From Acidiphilium iwatense (GTDB taxonomy: Bacteria > Pseudomonadota > Alphaproteobacteria > Acetobacterales > Acetobacteraceae), in NCBI RefSeq assembly GCF_021556475.1, contig NZ_JAKGBZ010000004.1, forward strand, positions 1 to 64,000: a DNA stretch of 64,000 nucleotides, written 5' to 3'. The notes below the pieces were generated by a model. It made no database searches and was not told the DNA's origin. It saw only the letters and a list, made by a program, of their open reading frames with translations. Shown in pieces: positions 4,243-39,969 of this stretch; the stretch's first letter is position 1; every line of letters starts with the position of its first letter. Both the position numbers and the translations under genes were made by a program.

Positions 4243-4417
4243 CGTCATTGCGACGCCGGGCGTCACACGAAGGCATGCATTCGCACGACGCGCGGCGGAA
4301 GCAATCCATTTTTCCGTGCATAACACTGCAATAAAATGGATTGCCTCCGCGCCGTTCCAACAATCCCTTGAATTGCCGGAACCTTTCGACGCTCCGCCGC
4401 GCCGGCTCGCAATGACG
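4243..4417. repeat. Two inverted copies of the dispersed repeat, one carrying a palindromic insert
   Basis: Copy 2 (4243-4309) runs CGTCATTGCGA to GCAATCCAT. Copy 3 (4336-4417) runs ATGGATTGCC to CGCAATGACG in the opposite orientation, so the pair forms a large inverted repeat. Within copy 3, bases 4348-4402 match the palindromic element at 39351-39411: GCCGTTCCA, then GGAACCTTT at the identical 27-base offset, then CTCCGCC. By hand count 30 of 45 core bases agree. This looks like a degenerate third copy of the element inserted into a repeat. Confidence 0.6.
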
Positions 4418-4554: not shown

Positions 4555-6179
4555 ATGAGCACCATCACTCTCACGGTCTCCGGCTCGCTCCCGTCCCTCG
4601 CCAGCGGCGAAGACGTTGTCGTCACCGGGTCCGGCGTCGTTGTCACCGCGACGAACGGCACGCTCGGCGGCAACAACGTGGTGACCGCGCAGGACGGCGC
4701 CACCTTCCTCGATAACGAATCCGGCAGCCTGCTGCTCGCAGCGAAACCTTCGTCGCCGGGCCGGGCGGCACGCTCGCCTTCGGCGCCAATGCGAGCGCCG
4801 GGGCGCTGTTGTCGGCGGACACATTCGAATTTTCCGGCACCGGCAGCACCATCCTGTTCGAAAGCGGGGCGAATGCCGGCCTGCTCGCCGACGTATCGGG
4901 TTACGCGGTCGGCGACGATTTCGTGTTTTTCGGCGACGGCACGGCGGGAAGCGTTGCCATCGTACAGAATCCGGGGATTCTGGGGCTCGGGGCGAGCACC
5001 GCCATCGAATTCGTCAACGCCACCGGCGGCACCTTCGCCAGCTATACGCTTGCCGCCGTCAACTGCTCCCTCACCGCCGCCGATTTCTCGGTAACGCGCG
5101 ACCCGACCGGAACCGGCATGGAGGTCGCCTATATCGCCTGCTATTGCCGGGGCACCAGAATCGCCACGGATGGCGGTGAGCGGCCGGTGGAAGATCTCGC
5201 CATCGGCGATCGCGTCGTCACAAGCGGCGGGGGGCTGCGGCCGATACGCTGGATCGGGTATCGCGCCTACGCCGCCCCGTTCATCGCCGGCCAGGCGCAT
5301 CTTCTGCCGATCCGCATCGCCGCCGGTGCGCTGGATGACAATGTTCCGGCGCGCGACCTGATGGTCTCGCCCGAACACGGCATCTATCTCGACGGCGTGC
5401 TGATCCCGGCGCGGCACCTGATCAACGGCGAGTCGGTCCGGCAGGAGGACGCGCGCGATCTCATCGAGTATTATCATGTCGAACTCGACAGCCACGGCGT
5501 GCTGCTGGCCGAGGGGGCTTCGGCGGAATCCTACGTCGATGACGGCAATCGCGCCATGTTCCAGAACGCGGCTTCGTATCGGGCCGCGCGTGGCGATGAT
5601 GCGGCGATTCCCGCCGCCTATTGCGCCGAGCGGCTGACGCGCGGGGACCGGTTCGAGGCAATTCGCGAGCGGATCGACCGGCGGGCCGGGTTGCGCGGGC
5701 GGTTCAGCGACGATCCCGATCTGCATCTGCTCGCGGACGGGGTTGTGGTGCGCCCGAGCGAGGCGGACGGCGAGCGGTACCGGTTCGACCTGGACAAGCC
5801 GGCAAGGACCCTGATCGTGAAATCGCGCATCGGGGTGACGGAGGGCGATGATGCGCGGATCCTCGGCGTCGCGATCAGCGCAATGCAGTGCGACGGCGCG
5901 GCGGTCGATCTCGCGCAACTCGCGGCGCCGGGATGGCATGGCGCCGGGGGCGATTCCGCAAGACGCTGGCGCTGGACCGATGGCGCGGCCCATCTGCCGC
6001 CGGGCGAAGTAGCCAAAAGTTCCTGCAATCTGCGGAATTGCAGGAATGGCTACGAAGGGGGAGCGCGGCGGATCGACATCACCGTATGCGGGCGATTGCG
6101 GTATCGCGAGATTATCGCCGAGGCGCCGCCCGGCCGCGTCGCGACATCCTGGCGGCAGCCGATGCCGACCGCGCGATGA
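4555..6179 (+). pseudogene. Hint_2-domain protein, frameshifted and carrying an in-frame palindromic insert
   Basis: The frame from ATG 4555 runs MSTITLTVSGSLPS up to SGSLLLA, then leaves the family sequence near 4740. The next frame continues it (ETFVAGPGGTLAF, GALLSADTFEF) to the stop at 6177-6179. One missing G at 4738-4743 (GCAGCGAAACC for GCAGGCGAAACC) explains this; real decay or a sequencing error are both possible. The C-terminal half is a Hint domain: CYCRGTRIATDGGERPVEDL, DLMVSPEHGIYLDGVLIPA, EYYHVELDSHGVLLAEG, matching the intact gene at 22780. Near the C-terminus an extra stretch of about 18 residues (VAKSSC...NGYEGG) is encoded by a palindromic element. The N-terminus resembles secreted beta-rich surface proteins. 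Substrate and function are unknown. Confidence 0.75.
6001..6061 (+). repeat. Palindromic element inserted in frame in a coding sequence, copy A
   Basis: The core 6009-6053 is a 45-base hairpin: GTAGCCA pairs with TGGCTAC, a 4-nt bulge AAAG sits on the 5' side, and TTCCTGCAAT pairs with ATTGCAGGAA around a 7-nt loop. With conserved flanks (CGGGCGAA before, GAAGGGGG after) it aligns gap-free with the reverse complement of 39351-39411. It is read as V-A-K-S-S ... N-G-Y-E-G-G in the same phase as the other copy. The homologous Hint protein at 22780 lacks it. Confidence 0.8.
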
Positions 6180-38743: not shown

Positions 38744-39733
38744 CTACTCGCGCAGCCCGGCGGGACGATAGCGCCGCAGATAATCCGGCACGATCAGGCG
38801 GATCGGCGTGGGCGTAATGCCGAGCGATTGCAGCCCCGAAGCTCCCTCGGCCACCACATTGTCGCGGCGGAGCTGCAGGAGCTGATCGCGGGTCAGCATT
38901 TTGCCGGGCAAGCGCTCCAGCAAAGCTGCCTGAACGCCGGCGAGCCAGCGCGGGATCGTGACCAGCGTACGATGCTGGCGGGTTTCCCGGAGGATATCTT
39001 CGAGCAGGTCGCGGAAGCTGTGAATGTCCGGGCCGCCGAGCTCGAAAATCCGGCCGGCCGCGTCCGGCCGGCCGATCGCCGCCATCACCGCATCCGCGAC
39101 ATCGCCGACATAGACCGGCTGGAACCGCGTTTGTCCCTCGATCACCGGCAGGATCGGCGAGACCGTCGCCATCCGGGCGAATCGGTTGAAGAACTGGTCT
39201 TCCGGCCCGAACACGATGGAGGGGCGCAGGATGACGGCTTGCGGGAAAGCGGCGCGCACCGCAGCCTCGCCCATGCCCTTGCTGCTTGCATAAAGGCTCG
39301 GGCTCGCGGGGTCGGCGCCGATCGCCGAGATATGGACCAGCGAGCGCACGCCCCCTTCGTTGCCGTTCCAGCGATGCTGTGCATCGCTGGAACCTTTGGC
39401 AACTCCGCCCGAAGCCGCGAGCCGGGCCACGGTTTCGGCGCCCTGGCGATGCACCCGATCGAAATCGCCGCGCCGGTGCTCGGCGAGAATGCCGACCAGA
39501 TTGACCACGCAATCGGCGCCGTCGATCGTGCGTTTCATCGCGGCTTCGTTGCCGAACGGCGCATAGAGCGGCACGATCTGGCCGACCCGGCCGAGCGGCC
39601 GCAGGAAGGCGCAGCTTTCGGGATCGCGCGTCGCGGCGCGCACGATATAGCCGCGATCAGCCAGATGTTTCACCACATAGCGGCCGATGAAGCCGGACGC
39701 GCCGAATACCGTTGCGATCATGCGGGGGTCCAT
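38744..39733 (-). CDS. NAD(P)-binding protein, complex I NDUFA9-like
   Basis: Atypical short-chain dehydrogenase/reductase fold related to the mitochondrial NDUFA9 subunit and to NAD-dependent epimerases. The Rossmann motif is VFGASGFIGRYVV, followed by RAATRDPES (NADP-type), NLVGILAEH, LVHISAIGADPASPSLYASSKGMGE and FGPEDQFFNRFARM. The start is ATG 39733 or ATG 39721. An extra 18-residue stretch (VAKGSSDAQHRWNGNEGG) interrupts the usual AAAAGVxxLVHISAIGAD region. It is encoded by a 61-bp palindromic element and keeps the frame open, so the protein should still be made. Confidence 0.85.
   Translation of the reverse strand: MDPRMIATVFGASGFIGRYVVKHLADRGYIVRAATRDPESCAFLRPLGRVGQIVPLYAPFGNEAAMKRTIDGADCVVNLVGILAEHRRGDFDRVHRQGAETVARLAASGGVAKGSSDAQHRWNGNEGGVRSLVHISAIGADPASPSLYASSKGMGEAAVRAAFPQAVILRPSIVFGPEDQFFNRFARMATVSPILPVIEGQTRFQPVYVGDVADAVMAAIGRPDAAGRIFELGGPDIHSFRDLLEDILRETRQHRTLVTIPRWLAGVQAALLERLPGKMLTRDQLLQLRRDNVVAEGASGLQSLGITPTPIRLIVPDYLRRYRPAGLRE
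39351..39411 (-). repeat. Palindromic element inserted in frame in a coding sequence, copy B
   Basis: Core 39359-39403 is 45 bases: GTTGCC pairs with GGCAAC, GTTCCAGCGATGC pairs with GCATCGCTGGAAC around a 3-nt loop, with a CTTT bulge (plus-strand reading). Read on the minus strand it aligns without gaps with 6001-6061. Of 13 differences in the 45-base core, six form three compensated base pairs, five are in the loop, and two are elsewhere. The coding phase matches copy A. Confidence 0.85.
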
Positions 39734-39883: not shown

Positions 39884-39969
39884 GCCCAGGTGGCGGAATG
39901 GTAGACGCGCAGGTTTCAGGTACCTGTGGCCGCAAGGCTGTGGAAGTTCGAGTCTTCTCCTGGGCACCA
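39884..39969 (+). tRNA. tRNA-Leu (anticodon CAG)
   Basis: Folds as a class II tRNA of 86 nt including an encoded CCA. The acceptor stem pairs GCCCAGG with CCTGGGC. The anticodon loop is TTCAGGT, anticodon CAG (reads CUG). A long variable arm follows (GGCCGCAAGGCTGT), and the T-arm is GTTCGAGTC. It lies 38 bases before an RNase D-type exonuclease gene. Confidence 0.95.

What the first reader, a model, noticed from the sequence alone, without database searches (positions are those of the whole stretch)
39351..39411. Palindromic element that inserts in frame into protein genes (copy B, with copy A at 6001-6061)
A 61-bp segment in the NDUFA9-like gene and one in the Hint-domain gene align without gaps when both are read on their coding strands. 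They share GTWGCCAAARGTTCC on one side and GGAAYGGCWACGAAGGGGG on the other. Each core folds as a 45-base hairpin with the same 4-nt bulge. Of 13 core differences, six make up three compensated pairs (A-T to T-A, T-A to A-T, A-T to G-C), five are in the loop and two elsewhere, so the fold looks maintained or the copies derive from structured progenitors. Both are in the same orientation and phase and encode VAK(S/G)S...NG(Y/N)EGG. The host proteins are unrelated, and the family sequence resumes on either side. This is the behaviour known for Rickettsia palindromic elements, but I know of no such element described in this group.
Basis: partly seen in the sequence, partly recalled or inferred. 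Interest (0 to 1): 0.92.

Follow-up and report, generated by a model that had tools for sequence, protein, structure and literature searches.

The report
Mobile hairpin inside bacterial genes
A roughly 54-letter DNA hairpin has spread to dozens of places in a group of bacteria related to the acetic acid bacteria, including the inside of protein genes, where surviving copies add a short extra peptide without breaking the gene; how it moves is unknown.

Summary
Both copies are real, and a third (4338-4398, minus) lies in the window. A covariance model gives 33 matches in the 4.16 Mb genome and matches in 31 of 299 genomes of the order; in 385 genomes of the class only this one matched. Two named plasmids carry it: Acidiphilium multivorum and Sphingomonas hankookensis. 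Base pairs covary. 80 of 80 distant and 10 of 10 aligned in-genus NDUFA9-like orthologues lack the 18 residues, as do 6 of 6 galM orthologues: insertion, not ancestral loop. Related empty sites put the insertion after (G/T)GGC, with no target duplication seen.

It is not a strictly in-frame element. Of 8 insertions in identified non-transposase genes 8 are multiples of three; of 33 in transposase genes 12 are: selection on a general inserter that often lands in insertion sequences and other palindromes. It works like Rickettsia palindromic elements but differs in length, host and target; no Y1 (RAYT) gene in 16 of 18 carriers tested, no Rfam family, no paper found. New variant of a known kind; mobilising enzyme unknown.

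The parts
39353..39406 (-). Copy B, net inserted unit of 54 bases (GGAG...GAAGG + 1 base), 18 codons inside the NDUFA9-like gene
   Evidence: Family model hit 39348-39409; residues absent from 80 of 80 distant orthologues and 10 of 10 in-genus orthologues aligned
39407..39410 (-). Target tetranucleotide GGGC preceding copy B
   Evidence: 112 of 140 distinct contexts have GGGC, 11 TGGC at this place; related empty sites keep it
39393..39396 (-). 4-nt bulge on the 5' arm of copy B (model columns 14-17), between outer stem (columns 7-13/45-51: 39397-39403 and 39359-39365) and inner stem (columns 18-29/33-44: 39381-39392 and 39366-39377)
   Evidence: Structure given to the model and counted; the fold of copy B itself shifts the bulge by one base
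38744..39733 (-).
   Evidence: SDR-type NCBIfam matches, all below their cut-offs; predicted fold mean pLDDT 93.1 with the insert blocks at 56 and 66 between helix 90-108 and strand 131-135
6006..6059 (+). Copy A, net inserted unit of 54 bases, inside the Hint-domain gene
   Evidence: Family model hit 6003-6064; length
4809..6179 (+). Host gene of copy A: Hint_2-domain protein
   Evidence: Pfam PF13403 E 1.5e-47
4338..4398 (-). Copy C (model match), nested in a CGTC-type palindromic repeat; not in a called ORF; net unit 53 bases
   Evidence: CGTCATTGCGAG at 4406-4417 minus

Best explanation
A non-autonomous mobile palindromic element. SHOWN: a dispersed family with fixed ends (GGAG or GAAG at the 5' foot, GGAGG or GAAGG plus one base at the 3' end), an imperfect hairpin with a one-sided 4-nt bulge, AAGGTTCC/GGAA kept and the rest of the stems varying by compensated changes; net lengths mostly 54, 51 or 50 bases; insertion after (G/T)GGC with no target-site duplication seen, into intergenic palindromes, transposase genes and ordinary genes. 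SHOWN by comparison: the identified copies in ordinary genes keep the reading frame and add 18 or 17 residues; in the one well-modelled host the insert is a low-confidence segment between a helix and a strand. INFERRED: the element is moved in trans, most likely as folded single-stranded DNA by an enzyme not yet recognised (a fixed 5' flanking tetranucleotide, no duplication, an asymmetric hairpin and insertion into other hairpins resemble HUH-type peel-and-paste); gene insertions that break needed reading frames are removed by selection.
For: 33 model matches in this genome and 39 in G313. Covariation: 13 of 19 pairs changed on both sides (shuffled mean 6.2), 93.9% of cells paired against 82.2% shuffled on 22 own copies aligned without the structure. 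Empty sites: 8 of 9 filled/relative pairs gave one gap of 50, 51 or 54 nt; the ninth relative, an IS5 on an Acidiphilium multivorum JZ-6 plasmid, turned out to carry the element itself, while another plasmid of the same strain has the IS5 without it. Orthologues lack it. Frame: 8 of 8 against 12 of 33, Fisher p 0.0013. No Y1 transposase in 16 of 18 carriers tested. In-frame copies on multi-copy or multi-genome IS elements (L070/L079/L086 and L220; L074/L083; L302/L308; L222/L223).
Against: No mobilising enzyme found; the single-strand route is an analogy only. The frame test mixes lineages whose elements differ in length (mostly 54 in G000, 50 in G313); within G313 alone it is 2 of 2 against 4 of 16, p 0.098. 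Out-of-frame copies also recur across genomes (L106/L116, L069/L119, L059/L117, L217/L225). Copies in G000, G003 and G007 often share flanks and spread as larger composite repeats, so copy number overstates independent insertions. On the wider alignment, fitted to the structure, the count of pairs changed on both sides is 14 against 11.7 shuffled and 21 of 500 shuffles reach it, although the other four measures were reached by none. The extra 3' base depends on the base 4 before the insertion (G in 102 of 112 against 4 of 22, p 7e-12), which a simple insert-after-GGC model does not explain. The compared empty sites are homologues at 68-83% identity, not the same locus, so a 1-2 base duplication could be hidden.
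Confidence: 0.68

Rival explanations
1. A member of the RAYT-mobilised REP (GTAG-type) family: the 5' GGAG foot and bulged hairpin are cut by a Y1 tyrosine transposase.
For: GGAG next to an imperfect hairpin, insertion without visible duplication and neighbours in opposite orientation (L050/L052, L056) are REP-like. A GGAG variant of the foot is recalled, not from a call.
Against: No Y1_Tnp match in this genome and none in 16 of 18 carrier genomes tested, including G000, G003, G047, G156 and G313; the two with a match are G005 (5) and G007 (1). The control rang in 5 of 14 known genomes, E. coli and Caulobacter among them.
Confidence: 0.1
2. A translational bypassing element (like T4 gene 60 or the byps of Magnusiomyces mitochondria, both recalled): ribosomes hop over the insert, so frame does not matter.
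For: Many 50-nt copies sit out of frame in transposase genes that stay open on both sides, one gene (G313:C54) with three; two out-of-frame variants at the same IS256 site occur in several genomes (L106/L116, L069/L119).
Against: All 8 copies in identified non-transposase genes are multiples of three; if bypassing worked they need not be. Some out-of-frame hosts have other damage (L059, L117, L106). The copies in galM, the NDUFA9-like, DinG-like and Hint genes read through without a stop.
Confidence: 0.05
3. An intergenic RNA element (terminator or mRNA stabiliser) that is useful to the host and only occasionally lands in genes.
For: By the simple caller 25 of 34 own copies do not overlap a called ORF; in G003, G007, G047 and G156 it sits in larger hairpins, some with T-runs.
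Against: Patchy distribution, 31 of 299 order genomes; repeated presence inside transposases; copies embedded in other repeats. Usefulness was not tested.
Confidence: 0.15
4. The family spreads only passively: as a passenger on insertion sequences and composite repeats, plus gene conversion between palindromes, with no enzyme of its own.
For: Many copies are on IS elements and in composite repeats with conserved flanks; both plasmid copies found are in transposase genes or what reads like one (IS5 in L332; an IS66-like gene in L339, by eye).
Against: Single insertions in galM and the NDUFA9-like gene leave an orthologous sequence interrupted by exactly 18 residues with no IS remnant in the alignment; a fixed target motif argues for a cutting enzyme.
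Confidence: 0.12

Closest known systems
Rickettsia palindromic elements (RPE-1 and others)
   Same: Small palindromes, dispersed, found in frame inside unrelated protein genes.
   Different: RPEs are given as about 150 bp, 44 gene insertions in R. conorii (PMC10969869, passages seen); here 50-54 bp, Acetobacteraceae-like hosts, target (G/T)GGC, many in transposases. No direct comparison with RPE sequences was made beyond Rfam.
CGTC-tagged REP repeats (include RPE-4 and RPE-6)
   Same: Short palindromes common in alphaproteobacteria, some intragenic, no dedicated transposase known (PMC3733652, passages seen).
   Different: The CGTC tag is absent; here the feet are GGAG/GAAG and GGAGG/GAAGG. This element is found inserted INTO CGTC-type repeats (L050-L058; window 4338-4417).
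GTAG-tagged REPs with RAYT transposases
   Same: Imperfect hairpin with a conserved foot, single or in opposite pairs.
   Different: Different foot, longer, often in genes, and no Y1 transposase in 16 of 18 carriers tested.
IS200/IS605-type single-strand transposons (analogy; family facts recalled)
   Same: No target-site duplication seen, fixed tetranucleotide on the 5' side, hairpin structure.
   Different: One hairpin only, no tnpA of its own, no Y1 gene in most carriers tested.

Membership tests
Rickettsia palindromic elements | Dispersed palindrome inserted in frame in unrelated protein genes and missing from orthologues | tested here: met
   8 of 8 identified non-transposase hosts keep a multiple of three
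Rickettsia palindromic elements | Homologous in sequence to a known RPE family | tested here: inconclusive
   No Rfam match for 10 loci; no RPE sequence set was compared. In 385 class genomes only this one matched the model
Rickettsia palindromic elements | Length about 150 bp as given in PMC10969869 | tested here: not met
   Net unit 50, 51 or 54 bases in 142 of 174 distinct copies
GTAG REP / RAYT | GTAG foot | tested here: not met
   First four bases of the unit are mostly GGAG, then GAAG: position 2 is G in 72% and A in 20% of 140 contexts
GTAG REP / RAYT | RAYT (Y1) gene in the genome | tested here: not met
   16 of 18 carrier genomes without PF01797
CGTC REP | CGTC at one end | tested here: not met
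   Ends listed
Translational bypass element | Frame of the insert is irrelevant in functional genes | tested here: not met
   8 of 8 multiples of three in identified non-transposase genes
IS200/IS605-like single-strand element | Fixed 5' target tetranucleotide and no duplication | tested here: met
   empty sites are homologues, not the same locus
IS200/IS605-like single-strand element | Y1 transposase in the genome | tested here: not met
   16 of 18 carrier genomes without PF01797
IS200/IS605-like single-strand element | Moves as single-stranded DNA | not testable with these tools
   Needs an experiment

The most novel reading that the evidence does not exclude
A previously undescribed class of structure-recognised mobile hairpin, found so far almost only in one alphaproteobacterial family, that inserts after (G/T)GGC without target duplication by means of an unknown, non-Y1 enzyme, and whose sequence (stop-free in all six frames in 77 of 149 distinct units, against 7.5% of mononucleotide shuffles; commonest length 54 = 18 codons) has been tuned by selection so that it can land in coding genes in either direction and be translated as a glycine-flanked loop.
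Probability: 0.35. Interest if true: 0.8.

Novelty: new variant of a known kind. Interest (0 to 1): 0.62.

Why it matters
Palindromes that sit translated inside protein genes have been discussed mainly for Rickettsia (as far as I know). A second case in GC-rich bacteria of another order, with related empty sites, a target motif and 174 distinct copies collected here, makes old questions testable: what moves such elements, how often they hit genes, and whether they seed new protein loops. The contrast between ordinary genes and transposase genes gives a natural readout of selection.

Tried and rejected
Sphingomonad origin: my first guess, dropped when named matches to the NDUFA9-like gene were Acetobacteraceae and other Rhodospirillales. 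RAYT-driven REP: no Y1 gene. Known RNA family: only a tRNA was found. Translational bypass: taken up, tested by host class, not supported. A 4-bp duplication (TGGC...TGGC in L034, L070) was rejected because GGGC copies and the Acidiphilium empty sites do not show it. GG|CGGAG...GGAGG was my first junction rule; the empty sites moved it by one base. Strand bias: 33 of 41 host sites are sense against 58% expected from TGGGC in coding strands (p 0.004), but I looked harder for sense hosts, so I do not rely on it. Replication-strand bias was not tested. Literature: no description found in eight full-text searches; most subscription papers are not held, so this is weak. The galM model is poor (mean pLDDT 68.0, six sequences); only its low confidence over the insert is noted. 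Left out of the 41-site table by hand: hosts recognised on one side only, or only by eye, or ORFs without a family (among them L036, L049, L054, L085, L088, L104, L109, L113, L121, L279 at 2710, L319, L330). L106 and L295 are in the table through the same gene or site in L116 and L310. Own-genome gene calls use a codon score trained on the window and are rough; an earlier 36-site tally was replaced. The plasmid search with the element missed the diverged Acidiphilium copy found later, so plasmid absence is not shown.

Full report
WHAT IS THERE. The two copies read are members of one family. A short pattern of the left end gives 21 hits in the 4.16 Mb genome with up to two mismatches, the reversed control 0. 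A covariance model built from 22 copies (R1) gives 33 matches at E up to 0.01 in the genome; in one fetched locus a 34th, weaker one adjoins another copy (L056). With filters off the window itself holds three: 39348-39409 minus, 6003-6064 plus and 4338-4398 minus; the fourth row there is the inner hairpin of copy B read on the other strand.

STRUCTURE. On the 22-copy alignment, made without the structure, 93.9% of cells are paired (shuffled 82.2%), 13 of 19 pairs have changes on both sides (shuffled mean 6.2), 0 of 500 shuffles reach any of the five measures, and no slid version exceeds 47.7% paired. On 74 copies (70 distinct) from several genomes it is 92.8% against 70.2% and a covariation score of 0.546 against 0.167; there the count of pairs changed on both sides, 14 against 11.7, was reached by 21 of 500 shuffles. 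That alignment was fitted to the structure. TTCC/GGAA next to the bulge is nearly invariant, the rest of both stems varies by compensation. Folded as DNA, copies A and B have z-scores of -5.3 and -7.7.

DISTRIBUTION. 13 of 40 genomes searched with R1, this genome included: 10 of 13 in the genus, 3 of 11 other members of the family, 0 of 16 in other families. In 299 genomes of the order, 31 have a match to R2 at E up to 1e-4, 11 of 65 genera; at most 18 candidates were scored per genome and weak matches may be lost. In 385 genomes of the class only this genome matched (14 candidates scored each). 0 matches in 80 named loci around the NDUFA9-like gene. Plasmids: a blastn search with one copy found one place, Sphingomonas hankookensis, 79.7% identity; it missed a diverged copy in an IS5 on a plasmid of Acidiphilium multivorum JZ-6, which the model finds at 50.7 bits (L332). 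G313 has 39 matches. Acidiphilium is in Acetobacteraceae by its record.

INSERTION, NOT ANCESTRAL LOOP. The NDUFA9-like protein carries 18 residues that are missing in 80 of 80 distant orthologues (79 by 18 residues, one by 19) and in 10 of 10 in-genus orthologues that I aligned (L375-L384; 13 genomes were searched, G005 and G009 gave only weak or split matches). galM has an 18-residue insert right after the LHGG motif, missing in 6 of 6 in-genus orthologues aligned (L342-L347, 64-70% identity; a seventh match, L348, does not reach the site; five of them realigned). The Hint protein of copy A has many paralogues and the insert lies at their variable C-terminal edge; consistent with insertion but not proved. 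In the predicted structure of the NDUFA9-like protein (mean pLDDT 93.1) the insert lies between helix 90-108 and strand 131-135 with block pLDDT 56 and 66, and is drawn with a short helix at 118-123.

JUNCTIONS. Nine filled insertion sequences were aligned with relatives on plasmids; 8 of 9 pairs gave one gap of 50, 51 or 54 bases. The ninth, L332, showed no gap because it carries a copy, one base shorter; another plasmid of the same strain, L335, has the IS5 empty. IS5 L070 against Acidiphilium cryptum and A. multivorum: TGGC, 51 bases, GGCAG. IS5 L067 against Sphingomonas sp. ERG5 and A. cryptum: TGGGC, 51 bases, CGA. IS256 L116 against Rhizobium: TGGGC, 50 bases, GGT. So the unit GGAG...GGAGG+N enters after (G/T)GGC; I see no duplication, though the relatives are 68-83% identical and 1-2 bases could be hidden. 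In L302 and L074 the aligner placed the gap elsewhere and the junction is less sure. Across 140 distinct contexts the four bases before the unit are GGGC in 112 and TGGC in 11; the model itself favours GGC, so this is partly circular, the empty sites are not. The last base N depends on the first base of the target: N is G in 102 of 112 contexts with GGGC and in 4 of 22 others ending in GGC. I cannot explain this.

WHERE IT LANDS. In this genome a simple caller places 9 of 34 copies over a called ORF and 25 not. Many intergenic copies lie inside other palindromes: CGTC-type repeats (L050-L058), GC hairpins in G003 and G007, T-run hairpins in G156. In genes, hosts supported by Pfam, NCBIfam or annotated homologues are non-transposase genes (galM, NDUFA9-like, a DinG-type helicase ORF below the NCBIfam cut-offs, Hint, two toprim-type genes of G313, and antisense in DUF2497 and a TraI-type helicase) and transposase or helper genes of IS256, IS5, IS3, IS21, IS66, IS110, IS630-like, IS701, IS1182, ISAs1 and ISL3 (for homologues).

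FRAME. I tabulated 41 host sites: 8 of 8 non-transposase sites carry a multiple of three, 12 of 33 transposase sites do (Fisher p 0.0013). Lineage confounds this: element length differs between genomes, and within G313 it is 2 of 2 against 4 of 16 (p 0.098). Site L327 has an unclear end and was counted as 51; L300 is counted by length although its ORF stays open. By eye all six sense non-transposase insertions follow an in-frame glycine GGC codon, giving peptides such as GGVAKGSSDAQHRWNGNEGGV. Of 149 distinct units 77 are open in all six frames against 7.5% of mononucleotide shuffles; the units share ancestry and palindromy, so this is suggestive only. Together this reads as a general inserter filtered by selection.

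MECHANISM. Not shown. No Y1 transposase in this genome, nor in 16 of 18 carriers tested. Fixed ends, a fixed target on one side, no visible duplication and a one-sided bulge point to a folded single strand as substrate; that is inference. Bypassing by ribosomes was considered because of the 50-nt out-of-frame copies, and is disfavoured by the frame table, not excluded for transposase genes.

KNOWN OR NEW. Seen in papers: passages of PMC3733652 on GTAG and CGTC repeats, including the statement that CGTC repeats are missing in Acetobacteraceae; passages of PMC10969869 on RPEs; passages of PMC2680597, not relevant. Search listings only; no listed title or abstract start describes this element. 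Rfam has none among 10 loci. I file it as a new variant of the palindromic-element kind, not as an RPE.

Noticed in passing
window 4338-4417: A third copy, nested in a CGTC-type repeat (CGTCATTGCGAG at 4406-4417 minus). PMC3733652 states that CGTC repeats are missing in Acetobacteraceae; if the host is of that family this is an exception.
   Followed up: partly
contexts ending in GGC: The base right after the 3' GGAGG tends to match the first base of the target tetranucleotide (G with GGGC, T with TGGC). Unexplained.
   Followed up: partly
L248 (G313:C54) 5117-5748: Three copies inside one IS701-like transposase gene, each 50 nt, with coding sequence open between them.
   Followed up: partly
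L332 and L335 (Acidiphilium multivorum JZ-6 plasmids NZ_CP041719.1 and NZ_CP041720.1): The same strain holds an IS5 with the element and one without it: a named, culturable starting point for mobility tests.
   Followed up: partly
L205-L243 (G047, G164, G236), L249-L264 (G156): Intergenic copies sit in larger hairpins with conserved outer arms (CCAAAGGG...CCCTTTGG; T-run hairpins), possibly terminators.
   Followed up: no
L302 and L308; L070, L079, L086, L220; L074 and L083; L222 and L223: Insertion sequences that occur in several copies or genomes while carrying an in-frame copy, suggesting that the transposase tolerates the extra 17-18 residues.
   Followed up: partly
window 39884-39966 plus: An ordinary tRNA gene next to the host gene of copy B (Rfam).
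   Followed up: no
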